Notes under the pieces: generated by a model
Told to the model about the DNA's origin: nothing
Database searches by the model: none
The model's input: the letters and a program-made list of their open reading frames with translations, nothing else
Origin: a virus
Reading direction: 5' to 3' (one strand)
Length of the DNA: 44,061 nucleotides
Virus record (IMG/VR): IMGVR_UViG_3300009641_000005
Coordinates: 1 to 44,061 of that record
Translations under genes and position numbers: made by a program
Shown: one piece after another, positions 8,811-16,000 of the stretch
How the letters are laid out: every line of letters starts with the position of its first letter
Numbering within the stretch: the first letter of the stretch is position 1

Positions 8811-10013
8811 TTAGGATTTCCCTAACTGCATTATCTGTTTATCTGCTACCAAGAACTCCATCAGAGTATCTGTCCCGCAATATAGCAGCAGTTGACGCAA
8901 TTCCACTTCTTCTTTCAGCAGGTTTAGCTTGCTCCCTTCCTGACTCTGCATGAACTCCCGAATCACTTCATCATAAGCCGGCATCCCGAGGTAGATGTAG
9001 GCTTGAAATTTGAGCCCGCTAATGTGCCGGCGATTATCAAGTACATGGGCCCCAATCACCGTATCATGCAACCAGTGTCGCACGCCACGACCAAATGCCC
9101 AATTAGTCCAACGATTTTCAAACTTCAACATCGAAGCAATGAAGTAGCAGTTGTCAGCATGGAGCAGTTCCTTAGTAGCCTCAATCGCCTCACCCTGCCA
9201 AGGATAGGCAATGGTCTTCTTCCCTTCCCAACAAGCCGACGCGCACAGGATTTGGGCCCCAGGGTACTCAGGCTTCAAGCAGTTGGCCTCATAATCAAAG
9301 GCGACCCGCCCCCCACGTCTGGCCATTTCCCGAAGGATCCGGGCTGCTTCAACTACATCAAACAGCACCTCGACCTGTTGCTCATAATTAGGAACCTTGT
9401 CCCAGGGCCGCCCCCGCAATTCAAAGGCTTCATGCAAGTGCTGTAAGAAGGTTGCCTCCAGAACTTCATCATGCCGTTTGAGAATGTAGCTCGGGTGGTA
9501 GGTTGGACAAATCCAAGCATTTGGTTTCTGACTAGGAATTCTCCAACCGGCCCAGCGACTAATGGGGCCCGGATTGTCATTCCATACTCCACCAATCAGG
9601 CTCTTGACCGCAGCAAAGCCTAGCAGCAAGATCACGTCCGGCTCTAACTGCTCTACCGTGTCGACCAGATTCGGGCGGCAATGGTCAATCATCATCTCAC
9701 TGGTGATCTTGTTTCCGGGCGGCCGACAGATCAGAGCGTTCGTTGTCCAACAGTCCTGATGGAGTTCAACCCCTGCTACCCGATCTAACATGTCCCGAAG
9801 ATAGCTTCCGACCTTGCCCACGAACTGTATCCCTTCTACATCCTCCGTCTCTCCCGGTGCCTCCCCTACCACAAGCACGCGCCGCTCACCCCTCCCAAAG
9901 GGTTTCATCTTGGGTGAGCGGCAAGAACGATACAATCCACACGCCCCACACGCTGGCAGCCGAGGAGGAGGAGCTTTTTGAATCAAAGTTGAGCGAGCGA
10001 AGAAGCCCTTCAT
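8811..10013 (-). CDS. family 4-type uracil-DNA glycosylase fused to DnaQ-like 3'-5' exonuclease
   Basis: The 400-aa protein has two domains. Residues about 20-215 match UDG families 4/5: Cys22-x2-Cys25 with further Cys for a 4Fe-4S cluster, the uracil pocket GEAPGETEDVEGIQFVG (about 50-66), TNALICRPPGNK, and the late motif YHPSYIL. Residues about 230-400 resemble the PolA-type 3'-5' exonuclease: VAFDYEAN (motif I, Asp/Glu), ASMLKFENRW (motif II) and YCGTDTLMEFL (motif III Asp). It would supply proofreading to the separate polymerase gene just downstream and recognise uracil in DNA. The start at ATG 10013 is chosen because it follows the clamp stop (TGA-g-ATG); an upstream frame to 10088 lies inside the clamp gene. 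Confidence 0.85.
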   Translation of the reverse strand: MKGFFARSTLIQKAPPPRLPACGACGLYRSCRSPKMKPFGRGERRVLVVGEAPGETEDVEGIQFVGKVGSYLRDMLDRVAGVELHQDCWTTNALICRPPGNKITSEMMIDHCRPNLVDTVEQLEPDVILLLGFAAVKSLIGGVWNDNPGPISRWAGWRIPSQKPNAWICPTYHPSYILKRHDEVLEATFLQHLHEAFELRGRPWDKVPNYEQQVEVLFDVVEAARILREMARRGGRVAFDYEANCLKPEYPGAQILCASACWEGKKTIAYPWQGEAIEATKELLHADNCYFIASMLKFENRWTNWAFGRGVRHWLHDTVIGAHVLDNRRHISGLKFQAYIYLGMPAYDEVIREFMQSQEGSKLNLLKEEVELRQLLLYCGTDTLMEFLVADKQIMQLGKS

Positions 10014-10014
10014 C

Positions 10015-11046
10015 TCACTCGTCCTTTTGGGCGGGTTCGGCAGCAACCGGGGCCAGCGCGGTAACAAAGGTCCATTTCGGCCCCTCAACCTTAAGTCGAT
10101 CCACCGCTACCTCAGCCTCAGTCTGCTTCTCCGTTATCTCGACCAGCAACCCAGGGGCGATATAGAACGACATCTCTGGGCCATCATAGACCAGCTTCTT
10201 GACCTCTTGATACCAACCGGACACGCCCGTGCCCTTAACTCGCATCCGACCGGAGCGCAGTTCAACCTTGATCAAATTGTCCTCGCTATTCTCCGCCGAG
10301 AAGATAGAGGCCTTCTCTACTACCTCTCCAAGTCCTTTCGGTAGGGTGATCGGGGAACCTTTGACCGCCAGCACCTTCGACAGGTCTTGGTACTCCAGCA
10401 TGTACCGACGCATACTCAACACCAATCCATCCGCATTGCGGAAATGGAGCCATGCCTCACTCTCCGAGAACTCCGACATACCCAACGCCACAATGTTGCG
10501 CAGCGCGTCCCGGCGTACTAAGGTAGCCTTTTTCAAACCGGTCTTAATCCTGACCCGGATGGCCTGCAGGTCATTACAGGATTCAATATGATCAGGGTGG
10601 AGATGGATGCAAGTCATGTTGAACTGACTCTCATCCTGGCTCGCGTGATGTTGGACAAGCCCAACCGCTTCGACAAATTCCTCTGACAAAGGTCGCCAGT
10701 CCCCCGGCTTCTCGACCTTGTTGAACGGAAGGGTCACTTCTGCCTCCAGTCGAATCCCGCATTTGCGATGCTTGCCAATCAGCACCAATTCCTTGCCTTC
10801 GATTTCATATTCGAGGGTTTCTTCCACGAGCTTGCCCAGGATCGCGACGAGCGGCAACGCTGGAACAGCCCCCTCGATATGCAAGTCACAATCCCGGCGA
10901 CAGGCCACTTCATCATTGTAGGTAAAGAGACGCTGCTTTTGAAAAACAAAGCACGAGCTCTGTTCAATAATCTCCCGGGGAGAAAGCCCCGCCTCAACTG
11001 ATTGCAGCTGAGCAAGCAGAGATTCACGATTGATTTGATTTGGCAT
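10015..11046 (-). CDS. sliding clamp (DnaN/beta-clamp-like)
   Basis: The 343-aa protein has the length and three-repeat beta/alpha pattern of DNA sliding clamps. Each repeat begins with a helix (ESLLAQLQSVEAGLS; RRDALRNIVALGM; LPKGLGEVVEKASIF) and continues with strands. VPALPLVAILGKL is like the beta-clamp helix that follows the first strand block, and DNLIKVELRSGRMRVKGTGVSGWYQEV is like the third-repeat strands. Direct sequence identity to bacterial DnaN looks low, so the call leans on architecture and on its place right before exonuclease, polymerase and clamp-loader genes. The ring would hold the polymerase on DNA. The ATG at 11046 overlaps the preceding small ORF by 23 bases with no strong ribosome binding site. 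Confidence 0.7.
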   Translation of the reverse strand: MPNQINRESLLAQLQSVEAGLSPREIIEQSSCFVFQKQRLFTYNDEVACRRDCDLHIEGAVPALPLVAILGKLVEETLEYEIEGKELVLIGKHRKCGIRLEAEVTLPFNKVEKPGDWRPLSEEFVEAVGLVQHHASQDESQFNMTCIHLHPDHIESCNDLQAIRVRIKTGLKKATLVRRDALRNIVALGMSEFSESEAWLHFRNADGLVLSMRRYMLEYQDLSKVLAVKGSPITLPKGLGEVVEKASIFSAENSEDNLIKVELRSGRMRVKGTGVSGWYQEVKKLVYDGPEMSFYIAPGLLVEITEKQTEAEVAVDRLKVEGPKWTFVTALAPVAAEPAQKDE

Positions 11047-11213: not shown

Positions 11214-12275
11214 CTAGGAAGAGGCAAGTCTAAGGGTTGCTATTTTGGGACGAGACTTGAAAGGCCACGGCCATTCTGGCAGCGCCTTCCGAAAGCGTTC
11301 AAACAGCAGCAGGTTGGCTTTGGCTCGCATGGTCCAATCATTGACAACGCCCTTAACTACTATCTTGTCATCCTTCCTATAGCCAAGCGGCACGCCAATT
11401 TCCATAAGCCAATCTCGGACGATCTGCTGCTCCTTCTCTGTCCGGCGATAGAGATGGACGCCGGAATAGTCCTCGAAGTTTGTCTCATCAGAGACCATCA
11501 GCATGTATGGATTCTCGGTCACCACGAATTGCCCCGCTCGATAGTGCGGGACATAGATGCGCCCATACCCGGCGAGCTTCACCCAGCTGGCGCTATCAAC
11601 CGACCACCAAGGGTAGCGGCGCATCAGGCTCCAGGCGGTCATGGCAAACCCATGCGTCCTGACCATCGGCTTGCGCGAGGGCTGATCACAAATCAGATCA
11701 AAGACCTGATCACCCCACGCTAGGTACTCCTCCTTCTTGACCTCCTGACCGAGCCCACCCAACCCGATCAGATCATACTTAGCCTCAAGGTGCTTGGCAA
11801 TCCACTTGAGGGGTGTACCATAATGAATGACTGGAACTGGATGCAGCCCATGCTCATCCTCGAGGTACTTCAGCACCTTCCAAGATAGCTCGGGATTGAA
11901 AATGACATCCACGGTCGCATAGAATTGGATTGCTCCCTGACAGCGTGGGTCCTTGAGGAAGGCAGCATAGGCATCACAATAGGCGTAGAACTCCTTCGAG
12001 GAATAGTAGGCATACTTCAGCTCTTTCTGCCGAGGAGTCAGATCACGCCCATGCACCCCACCGACCACGTGGACGTGCCGATTGTAGAGACCATGCGCCC
12101 CGGAATCAAAGAACACCTGATTGAGCTCTGTCTCAGCGTGTTCAAATAGGTATTGGTTAAGCTGACCATCCGGTGGCAGGCGAGACTCATCATCCAGGCT
12201 GTCCCGCTGCTCCTGCTCTTCAGGAACATAGGAACCAGGACGCAAGGCTCTGCGCTTATTGAATAGGCCGGTCAT
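11214..12275 (-). CDS. dpdA: DpdA-like 7-deazaguanine DNA transglycosylase (TGT family)
   Basis: The 353-aa protein shows marks of the tRNA-guanine-transglycosylase-related DpdA family, which exchanges guanine in DNA for a 7-deazaguanine base. FFDSGAHGLYN (about 55-64) matches the substrate-pocket DSGA motif. PVIHYGTPLKWIAKHL and DLIGLGGLGQEV are mid-barrel TGT-type segments, and MVRTHGFAMTAWSLMRRYP with WWSVDSASWVKLAGYG matches the late barrel region containing Asp-Ser in DpdA. It lies in a translationally coupled run with FolE, QueD and QueE, as expected for phages with 7-deazaguanine DNA. The ATG at 12275 overlaps the upstream stop as ATGA (12272-12275); a TTG 15 bases earlier is rejected. 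The exact base inserted cannot be told from sequence. Confidence 0.8.
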   Translation of the reverse strand: MTGLFNKRRALRPGSYVPEEQEQRDSLDDESRLPPDGQLNQYLFEHAETELNQVFFDSGAHGLYNRHVHVVGGVHGRDLTPRQKELKYAYYSSKEFYAYCDAYAAFLKDPRCQGAIQFYATVDVIFNPELSWKVLKYLEDEHGLHPVPVIHYGTPLKWIAKHLEAKYDLIGLGGLGQEVKKEEYLAWGDQVFDLICDQPSRKPMVRTHGFAMTAWSLMRRYPWWSVDSASWVKLAGYGRIYVPHYRAGQFVVTENPYMLMVSDETNFEDYSGVHLYRRTEKEQQIVRDWLMEIGVPLGYRKDDKIVVKGVVNDWTMRAKANLLLFERFRKALPEWPWPFKSRPKIATLRLASS

Positions 12276-13414
12276 ATACAGCCATGCCAAATGTTGACCT
12301 CCCTATTATCAGCTTTCACCCCGGTGATGATCTCTGCTTCGATGATACGACCAAGATCACACCTTCTGGCAATCCATTCGAGATCAACCAAGGGATGCTC
12401 TTCAGTCAACCGATTCAACAGCAGGCAAGCGTCCTCGACATTGAAAGCTCGATACAAGCGTGAAGCAGGGAGGATTTCGGGAAAACTGCGGAAGTCCGGA
12501 TAGGCCAATTCACATCCTGCAATCACTGCTTCAAGCAGCGTCCAGGAGACATAGTCCTGCAACGAGGAGTTAAACTGAATAGAAGAATTGCAAAGCTCAT
12601 CATAGTATTGCTGTTTGGTCAGACCTGCCTTGAGGATGAAACGAGGCTCATTCCGAGCGTAGGAAAGAATATCAGACAGCAAAAGATGATCATTCGACCG
12701 AAAGTTCTTGCTACTGGTAGTGACCGTCCAAGTCCAATTAGGATGACCGGTTAAGAAACGTTCGGCCACTTGAAGCATGAAGCCCGGATTCTTCTCCCAA
12801 TCAAGTCGGGAGCAAAAGATCACGTTCTTCCTACGTCCAATCGGAACGGACATCTGACAAGCCACCAACCGCGCGTGAATCGGCAGACCGACAACATGGA
12901 TAGGACATTGCACCCCGGCAGCACGCAATTGATCCCGATGGATGGTGCTGGCAACGAAGATGGCCGAATGGAATCGAGTCAGTCCTAGCTCCATTGGTCG
13001 CATCCATTCCCGCATCGGCCAAGTGAAGTCATATTCATCCACGCTCTGCGCATGGAGCATGGAATAAATCTTGGGTTTGAGCCCACACAGGTGCAGCGCA
13101 TAGGGGACCGCTTCAAATCCCGGCGTCCAAAAGTCCTGCAGGAAGATGGCATCCTCGTTGCTAACTGACCCATTCCGAATGAGCTTCAGCAGCAAGGCGA
13201 CCTGCGTGCAAGCATAGATCCCCCGACCAGTTGCATCCAACACCCCCCCGACTTGGATCTGCTCATCAGTCGTTTCCCCGCTGATCGTGGTGAGATTCGT
13301 CCTCGGCGAAGCCTCCCTAACCGCAGCCGGAAACCAATCCTCGCAGAGCTGCTTGGTATAACGGGCAGCTAATGGTTCCAACCCTAGATAAAAAAGCCTC
13401 CGAATTAATTTCAT
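12272..13414 (-). CDS. GT-B-fold glycosyltransferase (family 4-like)
   Basis: The 380-aa protein fits a GT-B glycosyltransferase. The C-terminal Rossmann domain opens with NVIFCSRLDWEKNPGFMLQV (the GT4 start: strand, R-x-x-x-x-KN), then WTWTVTTSSK and KAGLTKQQYYDELCNSSIQF, and ends with SWTLLEAVIAGCELAYPD, the E-x7-E region of sugar-nucleotide transferases in the form LLEAVIAG. The N-terminal domain (GRGIYACTQVALLLKLIRNG) would bind acceptor. It lies between the QueD-like fusion gene and the dpdA-like gene with ATGA overlaps on both sides, so it is almost certainly part of the base-modification operon. Adding sugar to the modified base, or to a precursor, is an inference; cell-surface or capsid sugar transfer is the alternative. 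Confidence 0.75.
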   Translation of the reverse strand: MKLIRRLFYLGLEPLAARYTKQLCEDWFPAAVREASPRTNLTTISGETTDEQIQVGGVLDATGRGIYACTQVALLLKLIRNGSVSNEDAIFLQDFWTPGFEAVPYALHLCGLKPKIYSMLHAQSVDEYDFTWPMREWMRPMELGLTRFHSAIFVASTIHRDQLRAAGVQCPIHVVGLPIHARLVACQMSVPIGRRKNVIFCSRLDWEKNPGFMLQVAERFLTGHPNWTWTVTTSSKNFRSNDHLLLSDILSYARNEPRFILKAGLTKQQYYDELCNSSIQFNSSLQDYVSWTLLEAVIAGCELAYPDFRSFPEILPASRLYRAFNVEDACLLLNRLTEEHPLVDLEWIARRCDLGRIIEAEIITGVKADNREVNIWHGCI

Positions 13415-14271
13415 AATTTGATCTCCACGTCCTGATCAAAGCCGGGATGATATAGCCAGGTGCTCCACAGCTCTGAACTAAAGACCTTGTGCCACACGAT
13501 ATTGTCTTTGAGGATCTGCTTCTGGTAGAGATGCTGTTTGTAGAAGCTCCGTCCAATGATGATTTTCTTAAAGTAATCCGACACCTCATAAAACGGACCG
13601 ACCACAACCACTGCACCGATCTGTTTCTGGTGCGGGAGCATCGACAGGAACTCACAAGTGTTCCTGGCCAGCAGCGGGCTATCAAGCTCAATATCTACCT
13701 GCAGCCTACATCGCTTGGCCTCCTTAAGAATCTGGTCCAGAAAGTAGAGGCCCACCCCATGCCGATTACCAGCCCCGCAGTAAATCCGTTGGACAAAGGA
13801 TCGCCCGGCCAGCTGCTCGACCTTGCGCAATGCGGACAAGGCTTCCGGTACGCTCACCCCACCCGGAATGAAAAGGGTTCGGGCTCCCTTGAAAGGACCC
13901 TCAAGTTCAGTACCAAGGAAGCAGCGGGGCCTCAACATCAATGCCCGATTCGAAGCGGTGACGGACGCCGCATTCTCCCCATCCTCCCCCACTGTCACCA
14001 CCTTCGCTCGGAAGTGAACTAGCAGATCTTCCGCGATCTGTTCGCAGCTCAGATCAAAGCAGCGATCCTCATAGGTCGCCCGAATATATTGATCGAGCTT
14101 CTTCTTGAACATGAAAAACTCAATCTTCCGATCATTGTGGCCGACGTTAAGGGTCACCATGACCGGAAAGATATGCCGATGGAACTGGCGAAGGAAGGCC
14201 ACCTCCTTTGGGGCGTCCTTCCAGCGATGCTGCGCTTGGAACGAGGTGCGGATGTGGAGTTGCGTGCTCAT
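13411..14271 (-). CDS. QueD-like (PTPS-fold) domain without catalytic Cys, fused to unknown C-terminal domain
   Basis: The 286-aa protein begins with a domain that lines up with 6-carboxytetrahydropterin synthase. FQAQHR carries zinc ligand His15, and FHRHIF carries His31-x-His33. These are followed by VTLNVGHNDRKIEFFMFKKK in place of the V.v.v.g.D..GmviDF..lk stretch, and CEQIAEDLLVHF in place of the SEN-IA helix with its Glu. The catalytic Cys that lies four residues before the first His of HxH in QueD is Leu27 here, so the chemistry must differ. Residues about 115-286 (GTELEGPFKGARTLFIPGG, IYCGAGNRHGVGLYF) match nothing I know. ATGA overlaps join it to folE and the glycosyltransferase. It could process CDG, for example by decarboxylation or transfer; that is inference. 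Confidence 0.65.
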   Translation of the reverse strand: MSTQLHIRTSFQAQHRWKDAPKEVAFLRQFHRHIFPVMVTLNVGHNDRKIEFFMFKKKLDQYIRATYEDRCFDLSCEQIAEDLLVHFRAKVVTVGEDGENAASVTASNRALMLRPRCFLGTELEGPFKGARTLFIPGGVSVPEALSALRKVEQLAGRSFVQRIYCGAGNRHGVGLYFLDQILKEAKRCRLQVDIELDSPLLARNTCEFLSMLPHQKQIGAVVVVGPFYEVSDYFKKIIIGRSFYKQHLYQKQILKDNIVWHKVFSSELWSTWLYHPGFDQDVEIKL

Positions 14272-14828
14272 AGAGATCGATGGACAAAGGATATGAATTC
14301 GGCCCGGACTTCTGGTTCAAGAAAAGATCCCCGAAGGACTTGTGTCGTCATCTGCTGGCCCTGCTTGCATATACCCCTGCTCTCCATGCACAGGTGTCGA
14401 GCCGTGAGCGAAACACCCACCCCAATTGGATGTAGATGCTCCATTAGTGCGTCAGCCACCTGCTGAGTAAGCCTCTCCTGGATCTGCAGGCGCCGCGCAT
14501 ATACCTCCAAGACCCGAGAGAGTTTGCTCACCCCAACCACGCGCTTGTCAGGAATATAACCAATGACCGCTGTTCCAAAGAAAGGAGCTAAGTGATGCTC
14601 GCAGAGACTGTAGAAGGGAAGGTCTCGCAGGAGAACCATTTCATTATATTTCTCCCCCCCTTCCTTGAAGCACGTCAGCAGCTTGCCCACGTCCTGATGA
14701 TAACCGACCGTCCACTCCTTCCAAGCTCTTAGCACCCGAGCCGGTGTCTTGAGCAGACCTTCCCGCATTGGGTCCTCCCCGACGAAGCGCAAAATCTCCC
14801 GGATCGTTTCTTCATCGGCTCTCTTCAT
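14268..14828 (-). CDS. folE: GTP cyclohydrolase I
   Basis: The 186-aa enzyme turns GTP into 7,8-dihydroneopterin triphosphate, the first step to folates and to 7-deazaguanines. The family motifs are present: EDPMREGLLKTPARVLRAWK near the start, SLCEHHLAPFFGTAVIGYIP with the zinc Cys-Glu-His-His, VVGVSKLSRVLEVYARRLQI, QERLTQQVADAL, and the late CMESRGICKQGQ stretch with the second zinc Cys. The length is that of a bacterial type IA enzyme. It starts one base after the queE stop (TGA-g-ATG) and ends in an ATGA overlap with the QueD-like fusion gene. Its place here marks it as feeding the deazaguanine pathway rather than folate. Confidence 0.95.
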   Translation of the reverse strand: MKRADEETIREILRFVGEDPMREGLLKTPARVLRAWKEWTVGYHQDVGKLLTCFKEGGEKYNEMVLLRDLPFYSLCEHHLAPFFGTAVIGYIPDKRVVGVSKLSRVLEVYARRLQIQERLTQQVADALMEHLHPIGVGVSLTARHLCMESRGICKQGQQMTTQVLRGSFLEPEVRAEFISFVHRSL

Positions 14829-14829
14829 C

Positions 14830-15519
14830 TCAATATCCTTTCTTCAGGTCACCACCGAGTGGGACCGGCGGCTTAGTCCTATTATCTAGGAAGTCGGCGG
14901 CGTAGAGTTTGTGAAGCTGCCAACCTACGCGCAGAATAGCAGAGCCAGACAAAGCCCAACGTACCATTCCATCGAGCAGAGCTTTGTCATTCCGACGCGA
15001 CCATTCTGGATGCAGCCAAATTGGTACATTAGGATCCAAGTTTCCCCCAAGCTGATCGCGCAACGTATCAAGCCACCATTCAACGTCCGAAGGCTGCTCG
15101 ATGATCAGCTTCAGCTCATCGGCCAAGGCAATGGATTGAGGAGGAGGAATGTTCTGCCGCTTGGGAGAAAGGGTGACCCAATCAAAGATGTCTGGGAACA
15201 TTCGATAGCCGGAGGTCTCCAAATGCACACTCTGATTGGACGCGTGCATCAGATCAACCAGCAGGTGAAGATCGTGGACAATCGGCTCCCCACCGGTGAT
15301 GACGATAAAATCGCAGCAGGTCTCTCCGGCCTCTTTCACGAGCTGCTCCTCCGAGATCCTTTCAATCTTGTCCGGAATATACTTCGGGTGCCAAGTCCCA
15401 GCTGCATCACACCAAGGGCACTTCAATGGGCACCCGAAGGTACGAATGAAAAAGGCTGGTCGGCCAAGATGAACCCCTTCCCCTTGGAAGCTATAGAAAC
15501 GCTCATGAATTGGTAGCAT
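14830..15519 (-). CDS. queE: 7-carboxy-7-deazaguanine synthase (radical SAM)
   Basis: The 229-aa radical-SAM enzyme converts 6-carboxytetrahydropterin to 7-carboxy-7-deazaguanine (CDG). The N-terminus FYSFQGEGVHLGRPAFFIRT is diagnostic for QueE. The cluster-binding Cys30-x3-Cys34-x2-Cys37 (GCPLKCPWCD) has the canonical CxxxCxxC spacing, and the SAM-binding GGEP motif follows (VITGGEPIVHD). KRQNIPPPQSIALADELKLII corresponds to the substrate-binding C-terminal half. It follows queD with a 1-base gap and precedes folE. All parts look intact, so CDG production seems possible if iron-sulfur supply comes from the host. Confidence 0.92.
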   Translation of the reverse strand: MLPIHERFYSFQGEGVHLGRPAFFIRTFGCPLKCPWCDAAGTWHPKYIPDKIERISEEQLVKEAGETCCDFIVITGGEPIVHDLHLLVDLMHASNQSVHLETSGYRMFPDIFDWVTLSPKRQNIPPPQSIALADELKLIIEQPSDVEWWLDTLRDQLGGNLDPNVPIWLHPEWSRRNDKALLDGMVRWALSGSAILRVGWQLHKLYAADFLDNRTKPPVPLGGDLKKGY

Positions 15520-15520
15520 G

Positions 15521-16000
15521 TCAGGAAATGGTCGCGAAGTTCTTCTCGTCCTCCCAAACTGTCACCTTCGAAACCCGCACCTCGCGCTCGGCTAACTCAT
15601 CCCTAGAACGTAACAGGACGTTAACCTCCTCTAAGACCTGCCGAGCTATCCCTTCCGCCCCACAATTATGAACAAGGGTAATCTTGGCCAGAGGCTTAAG
15701 CCCAATCGCCTTCATCGCAGCACCGCAGAGCACACTCTCAAGATATTCCCGACCGGGATCAGTCCGATTCAACACGAGGGTATGATCAAAGCGTTCCTCA
15801 AGCCACTTCTTCAGCCAATCCAACTTGCCGAAGTCAATCACAAATCCGTTGTCATCAAAATCCATGCAGGAGAACTGGATCTCGATCTTCCAGTTATGCC
15901 CGTGGATAAGTGCGCAGTGTCCATCGTGAGAATGCTGCCGATGGGCGAAGGGAAATGGTCCGAAGACCTTGCTGCAAGTGATGCTCATAGTAATATCCAT
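15521..16000 (-). CDS. queD: 6-carboxy-5,6,7,8-tetrahydropterin synthase
   Basis: The 159-aa enzyme converts dihydroneopterin triphosphate to 6-carboxytetrahydropterin. The zinc ligands are His20 (FAHRQ), His33 and His35 (IHGHNW), and Cys29 sits four residues before His33 in the catalytic C-x3-H-x-H pattern. It also has VIDFGKLDWLKKWL, FDHTLVLN with the Asp-His pair, and CGAEGIARQVLEEV with the catalytic Glu. It is thus a complete QueD, in contrast to the Cys-less relative three genes downstream. The ATG at 16000 lacks a good Shine-Dalgarno and is preceded at once by a hairpin with a T-rich tail. It is the first gene of the deazaguanine cluster. Confidence 0.93.
   Translation of the reverse strand: MDITMSITCSKVFGPFPFAHRQHSHDGHCALIHGHNWKIEIQFSCMDFDDNGFVIDFGKLDWLKKWLEERFDHTLVLNRTDPGREYLESVLCGAAMKAIGLKPLAKITLVHNCGAEGIARQVLEEVNVLLRSRDELAEREVRVSKVTVWEDEKNFATIS

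What the first reader, a model, noticed from the sequence alone, without database searches (positions are those of the whole stretch)
13411..14271. QueD-like domain that kept the zinc His triad but lost the catalytic Cys, fused to an unknown domain
The first 110 residues align by eye with QueD: FQAQHR (His15) and FHRHIF (His31, His33) give the zinc triad, but the Cys expected four residues before His31 is Leu27. The bona fide QueD three genes upstream has Cys29 in the right place, so the two are not redundant. The C-terminal 170 residues (GTELEGPFKGARTLF; GAGNRHG) match nothing I know. Coupling with FolE, glycosyltransferase and DpdA genes suggests a changed chemistry on CDG, for example decarboxylation, or on the inserted base. 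Some phages are known to tailor CDG after QueE; whether this is the same family I cannot tell.
Basis: partly seen in the sequence, partly recalled or inferred. Interest (0 to 1): 0.85.

Follow-up and report, generated by a model that had tools for sequence, protein, structure and literature searches.

The report
Cys-less QueD-like phage DNA-modification fusion enzyme
A virus gene encodes a relative of the base-making enzyme QueD that has lost QueD's catalytic residues, fused to a second, previously undescribed protein; both belong to a widespread viral gene set that probably makes a modified guanine for viral DNA by a route that skips the usual enzyme QueC and often includes a sugar-transfer enzyme.

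Summary
Residues 1-107 are a QueD fold (AlphaFold pLDDT 93; best match E. coli QueD, Z 13.4, rmsd 1.9 A over 104 residues). His15/31/33 and Leu27 are invariant in 45 homologues; QueD's Asp70-His71 pair is also missing, while the two ligand-side glutamates are kept. So this is a distinct family, not a decayed QueD. It has at least 591 IMG/VR matches, mostly standalone ~115-150 aa genes beside folE, queD and queE. Full-length QueC is absent from all 25 carrier records searched. This fits DpdL, the predicted CDG decarboxylase (from memory; paper not held). The C-terminal ~180 aa are not a one-off: they are a divergent fused copy of a family (CTD) that is elsewhere a separate ~175 aa gene near the QueD-like gene (76 of 80 CTD loci), found only in modules with a GT4-like glycosyltransferase and/or DpdA. 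CTD has no Pfam, PHROG or confident PDB match. Best reading: a CDG-tailoring zinc enzyme, probably a decarboxylase, fused to an accessory protein, in a QueC-free DpdA module that may glycosylate the product. The chemistry is untested.

The parts
13411..14271 (-). QueD-like / CTD fusion protein, 286 aa
13954..14271 (-). N-terminal QueD-fold domain (residues 1-106), DpdL-like; zinc His15, His31, His33; Leu27 in place of the catalytic Cys; invariant H45, R48, E51, S75-C76-E77, E96-D97
13414..13953 (-). C-terminal domain (residues 107-286), divergent fused copy of the CTD family (F-x-G-x-E-x-E ... TLF ... G ... Y-x-GA)
15521..16000 (-). QueD (CPH4 synthase), Cys29/Asp72/His73 and HGH zinc motif intact
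14830..15519 (-). QueE, radical SAM CDG synthase, CX3CX2C intact (CPLKCPWC)
14268..14828 (-). FolE, GTP cyclohydrolase I
12272..13414 (-). GT4-like glycosyltransferase (R203, K208, E295 invariant in 14 homologues); overlaps the end of the fusion gene by 4 nt
11214..12290 (-). DpdA, DNA guanine transglycosylase homologue (start codon uncertain)

Best explanation
The protein is a CDG-tailoring enzyme of a QueC-free phage DNA-modification module. Shown: FolE, QueD and QueE genes with intact signature motifs lie just upstream, so CDG (7-carboxy-7-deazaguanine) should be made; no full-length QueC is encoded, so CDG is not turned into preQ0 by the virus itself; the N-domain is a QueD fold that keeps the zinc His triad and the two ligand-side glutamates but lacks Cys27 and Asp70-His71, and has family-specific invariant His45, Arg48 and Glu51. 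Inferred: CDG binds through its guanine-like edge where QueD binds its pterin, which places the C7 carboxylate at the zinc; His45, Arg48 and Glu51 take over from the lost Cys/Asp/His, and C7 is protonated with loss of CO2, giving 7-deazaguanine (the DpdL reaction). DpdA then exchanges the base into DNA. The fused C-terminal domain is an accessory protein of the glycosyltransferase-type module, tethered here to the QueD-like enzyme; its role is unknown and may be to hand over the product, or to help DpdA or the GT4-like enzyme, which may add a sugar.
For: Fold: pLDDT 93.4; all 28 Foldseek hits with E<=0.001 are QueD/PTPS or uncharacterised relatives of it; Z 13.4 to E. coli QueD. Residues. Module: of 89 QueD-like loci, 66 have the GT and none has QueC; QueC absent at full length in 25 of 25 carrier records with phage 9g as positive control; PTPS/QueD present in 22 of 25. 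QueC phages 9g and CAjan lack the QueD-like gene. CTD linkage: 76 of 80 CTD loci hold the QueD-like gene, median gap about 320 bp; 21 of 21 full-length loci hold both it and the GT.
Against: No activity data; decarboxylation is inferred from context and from memory of a paper not held. A decarboxylated base leaves no obvious handle for the glycosyltransferase linked to it in 66 of 89 loci, so another reaction on CDG is possible. Bipper, a phage without QueC, also lacks the QueD-like gene, so such a phage can do without it. A host QueC could in principle supply preQ0. The register of the zinc histidines was not measured in 3D; hhalign places it two residues off. The fused C-domain lacks the K-x-D-D motif of its standalone relatives.
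Confidence: 0.55

Rival explanations
1. The QueD-like domain does not decarboxylate but activates or otherwise converts CDG so that the GT4-like enzyme can attach a sugar (for example through the carboxylate, N2 or C7), giving a glycosylated 7-deazaguanine in phage DNA; the CTD is a subunit or extra enzyme of that branch.
For: GT in 66 of 89 QueD-like loci and 21 of 21 full-length CTD loci; the GT keeps GT4-type Arg, Lys and Glu; CTD never occurs with the GT-less TGTsm type. Precedent: the huimycin cluster pairs FolE/QueD/QueE homologues with a glycosyltransferase proposed to glycosylate the 2-amino group of a 7-deazaguanine (PMC7439116).
Against: TGTsm-type phages have the same QueD-like gene and no GT (18 loci), so its reaction must make sense without a sugar step. 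No modified base has been measured in this window's virus.
Confidence: 0.25
2. The QueD-like protein is a non-catalytic partner, for example a subunit that completes or regulates QueD, whose zinc ligands are altered in many of these phages.
For: QueD's three catalytic residues are missing; many QueDs of these modules lack one or two zinc His (HGY for HGH).
Against: Zinc triad plus H45/R48/E51/E77/E96 are invariant in 45 sequences, which suggests an active centre; the window's own QueD is complete.
Confidence: 0.1
3. A QueD paralogue that still makes CPH4 or another pterin by a Cys-independent route.
For: Same fold; zinc site kept.
Against: A separate PTPS/QueD is encoded in 22 of 25 carrier records; Cys, Asp and His lost throughout the family alignment.
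Confidence: 0.05

Closest known systems
DpdL, predicted 7-carboxy-7-deazaguanine decarboxylase (Cui et al. 2023, NAR gkad657; from memory, paper not held)
   Same: Phage 7-deazaguanine pathway gene acting after QueE; this family sits with folE/queD/queE without queC, as a CDG decarboxylase would.
   Different: Sequence identity to DpdL could not be tested; here the domain is fused to a second family and linked to a glycosyltransferase.
QueD (6-carboxytetrahydropterin synthase), E. coli, PDB 4ntk
   Same: Fold (Z 13.4, rmsd 1.9), zinc His triad by sequence, equivalents of Glu86 and Glu110.
   Different: No Cys27, no Asp70-His71; new invariant H45 and R48; no Pfam PF01242 hit.
phrog_17812 (unknown function)
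   Same: The N-domain hits it at 6e-21; Cellulophaga phi13:1 gp034 at 4e-69.
   Different: The PHROG is a 115-residue standalone protein without annotated function.
Acidovorax phage ACP17 83137-83535 (132 aa, annotated hypothetical protein)
   Same: Standalone CTD family member beside folE; ACP17's A0A218M2X8 is the only confident BFVD fold match of the family.
   Different: Separate gene; the window copy is fused and more divergent.

Membership tests
QueD / PTPS (CPH4 synthase) | T-fold of the PTPS type | tested here: met
QueD / PTPS (CPH4 synthase) | Catalytic Cys27 | tested here: not met
   Leu27, invariant in 45 homologues
QueD / PTPS (CPH4 synthase) | Catalytic Asp70-His71 | tested here: not met
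   No Asp-His at the equivalent place in the family alignment; invariant in 23 QueDs
QueD / PTPS (CPH4 synthase) | Zinc His triad | tested here: met
   H15, H31, H33 invariant in 45 sequences; metal binding and 3D geometry not tested
QueD / PTPS (CPH4 synthase) | Pfam PF01242 match | tested here: not met
   no family at E<=1
DpdL (CDG decarboxylase) | Sequence similarity to the published DpdL | not testable with these tools
   paper and sequences not held
DpdL (CDG decarboxylase) | Conversion of CDG to 7-deazaguanine | not testable with these tools
   needs an enzyme assay
DpdL (CDG decarboxylase) | Setting: FolE, QueD, QueE and a DpdA present, QueC absent (criterion inferred here) | tested here: met
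CTD family (defined here) | Homology of residues 107-286 to the standalone proteins | tested here: met
   profile-profile E 4e-9 and 1e-6; HMM hits from 1e-5; similarity mainly in the N-terminal ~95 residues
CTD family (defined here) | K-x-D-D-x-D-F motif of the standalone members | tested here: not met
   lost in the window copy; only the VW and C-terminal W/Y/D positions align
GT4 glycosyltransferase (gene 12272-13414) | Glycosyl transferase group 1 domain | tested here: inconclusive
   window protein below cut-off; 7 of 14 members of its family alignment match PF00534, best 7e-12
DpdA (gene 11214-12290) | TGT/DpdA family match | tested here: met
   phrog_887 E 2e-31; similar to phage 9g DpdA

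The most novel reading that the evidence does not exclude
A QueC-independent phage pathway in which a QueD-derived zinc enzyme, a GT4-like glycosyltransferase, DpdA and the undescribed CTD protein together place a sugar-bearing 7-deazaguanine in DNA; in this virus two of its parts are fused.
Probability: 0.3. Interest if true: 0.85.

Novelty: new variant of a known kind. Interest (0 to 1): 0.6.

Why it matters
It turns a one-gene oddity into a defined, widespread module: more than 590 QueD-like and more than 560 CTD matches in IMG/VR, and members in cultured phages such as ACP17, PA5oct, Paride and BUCT-ZZ01 (BUCT-ZZ01 without CTD). It links two parts that had no assigned role (the GT4-like gene and the CTD family) to 7-deazaguanine DNA modification and predicts a QueC-free, possibly glycosylated base in these phages. 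That can be tested directly by mass spectrometry on phages already in hand.

Tried and rejected
CTD as a degenerate QueE: two QueE chains appear in the structural second look (Z 6.0 and 5.7), but unrelated folds score as high (best Z 7.1) and hhalign of CTD against QueE gives E 0.19; rejected. Foldseek of CTD against PDB gives nothing at E<=0.001 and against BFVD only ACP17's relative; absence of a match does not prove a new fold, and the model is of L080, not of the window copy. tblastn of the window CTD against phage records found nothing credible; the link only appeared through intermediate sequences. A mixed alignment of both domains failed because MAFFT forced the two families onto each other. 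A profile search of PDB sequences with the first small alignment missed QueD; the larger one reached QueD/PTPS only at E 0.02-0.65. PADLOC found nothing. DpdL text searches found only unrelated uses of the letters.

Full report
What is there. The finding's ORF is real but lies on the minus strand: 14271..13411, 286 aa. It is the fourth gene of a co-directional run: QueD (16000-15521), QueE (15519-14830), FolE (14828-14268), the fusion, a GT4-like gene (13414-12272) and DpdA (12290-11214). FolE, QueE and QueD match their families strongly, and DpdA matches phrog_887 at 2e-31. The fusion overlaps its neighbours by 4 nt on both sides. The window is an IMG/VR virus record, and copies 93-100% identical occur in three other IMG/VR contigs.

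N-terminal domain. The first 106 residues have no Pfam hit but match phrog_17812 at 6e-21. In 26 sequenced phage records the domain has relatives, mostly standalone genes of 115-127 aa beside folE, queD or queE. A profile search of IMG/VR gave at least 591 relatives, of which the best 80 were kept. In 45 diverse sequences H15, L27, H31, H33, F35, H45, R48, E51, F52, S75, C76, E77, E96 and D97 are invariant. The replacement of QueD's Cys by Leu is therefore a fixed family trait. QueD's Asp70-His71, invariant in 23 QueDs, has no equivalent.

Is it a QueD fold? Profile-profile comparison with QueD gives E 1.2e-6 and, with larger alignments, 4e-9 to 6e-9, against 0.014 for FolE and 0.23 for QueE. 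AlphaFold2 of the window domain has mean pLDDT 93.4. All 28 Foldseek hits at E<=0.001 are QueD/PTPS proteins or uncharacterised relatives of them, and VIA-align gives Z 13.4, rmsd 1.9 over 104 residues with E. coli QueD.

Setting. In 89 loci with the domain, none contains QueC; 59 contain FolE, 46 QueE, 37 QueD and 66 the GT4-like gene. Flanks are limited to 6-8 kb, so counts of present genes are minima. Over whole records, a full-length QueC is absent from 25 of 25 carriers, with phage 9g as positive control; D479 has a partial hit and two other records have weak ones. A PTPS/QueD is present in 22 of 25. By contrast, the two QueC phages tested (9g, CAjan) lack the domain. Bipper, noted as QueC-less in PMC6884629, lacks it too, so lack of QueC does not always come with the domain.

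Two module types. 18 loci carry a small TGT-like gene ('TGTsm', phrog_20335 in Cellulophaga) and neither GT, CTD nor DpdA; 61 carry GT and DpdA, 45 of them also CTD. CTD never occurs with TGTsm. Gene order is regular and all scored genes are co-directional: the next scored gene after the QueD-like gene is the GT in 58 loci and TGTsm in 18.

C-terminal domain. The window's C-terminal 180 residues alone hit L021 (2.7e-5, another fusion) and L035 (2.8e-4, standalone). A three-sequence model of these finds about 40 standalone ~175-aa proteins from 1e-5 on; hhalign gives 4e-9 and 1e-6 against controls of 0.01 or worse. The similarity is concentrated in the first ~95 residues (F-x-G-x-E-x-E, TLF, Y-x-GA); the K-x-D-D motif of the standalone family is missing in the window copy. 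Searching IMG/VR with the standalone family gave at least 563 relatives; of the 80 loci kept, 76 hold the QueD-like gene (the other four are short contigs that end soon after), 21 of 21 full-length loci hold both it and the GT, and none holds QueC. Cultured phages with it are ACP17 and the PA5oct/MIJ3/Paride group. It has no Pfam or PHROG family and no confident PDB match although the model of a standalone member is good (pLDDT 91, pTM 0.86).

Glycosyltransferase. The window gene is only weakly GT4-like, but 7 of 14 members of its family alignment match Glycos_transf_1, the profile reaches the glycosyltransferase WlaC at 7e-4, and Arg, Lys and Glu of the kind that bind the nucleotide sugar in GT4 enzymes are invariant (the role of these residues is from general knowledge). 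A precedent for a GT clustered with FolE/QueD/QueE homologues and proposed to glycosylate a 7-deazaguanine is huimycin (PMC7439116).

How it most likely works. Shown: intact FolE-QueD-QueE motifs, no QueC, a QueD fold with zinc ligands and ligand-side glutamates but without QueD's catalytic residues, DpdA next door. Inferred: the substrate is CDG, whose guanine edge resembles the pterin edge; its carboxylate reaches the zinc; the reaction is most likely decarboxylation to 7-deazaguanine. I recall from the abstract of Cui et al. 2023 that a CDG decarboxylase 'DpdL' was predicted for phage dDG synthesis, but that paper is not held and membership is untested. The strong link with a glycosyltransferase keeps open a glycosylated product. 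The fused CTD is probably an accessory protein of the GT-type module; its role is unknown.

Verdict. Observation confirmed with strand and residue corrections; interpretation partly supported. New over the finding: family-wide fixation of the Cys loss, QueC exclusion, the GT link, and the CTD family. I class it as a new variant of a known kind (phage 7-deazaguanine modification), interest 0.6.

Noticed in passing
L004 1706-2179, L002 4241-4705 and other phage QueDs in these modules: Many bona fide QueDs of these modules have HGY instead of the zinc HGH motif, and several lack the first zinc His, while keeping Cys, Asp-His and Glu.
   Followed up: partly
L115 7932-10075 (Streptomyces sp. NEAU-Y11): A QueD-like gene next to QueD, FolE, a deaminase-like and an FAD-oxidase-like gene in a bacterial genome, with no DpdA seen: possibly a 7-deazapurine natural product cluster.
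   Followed up: partly
L003 5458-6339 and L013 5131-6282: QueD-like genes of Chryseobacterium phage MA9V-3 and Vibrio phage Bakedbeans carry long N-terminal extensions; the MA9V-3 one looks like an HNH endonuclease by eye.
   Followed up: no
IMGVR_UViG_3300023175_000005 (L039) and IMGVR_UViG_3300028392_000030 (L056): These two virus contigs give 19 and 12 radical SAM domain matches, unusually many.
   Followed up: no
L101 2047-2472 (Mycobacterium phage Bipper gene 4): Unknown protein between DpdA and QueD in a phage that lacks both QueC and the QueD-like gene; a candidate for another CDG step.
   Followed up: no
L010 1977-2878: In this near-identical contig the fusion gene is split by a frame change inside the QueD-like domain; assembly error or a broken copy.
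   Followed up: no
L001 6726-7505 and L003 6812-7606: The small TGT-like protein (phrog_20335) of GT-less modules is only a marginal match to DpdA (hhalign E about 0.004); it may be a distinct DpdA subfamily.
   Followed up: partly
L104-L107 (Magnetospirillum genomes): GT, QueD-like, DpdA and QueD genes occur together in several Magnetospirillum contigs, possibly proviruses.
   Followed up: no
window 8811-10088, minus strand: By eye, a uracil-DNA-glycosylase-like N-terminal part followed by a 3'-5' exonuclease-like part, next to a DNA polymerase I-like gene.
   Followed up: no
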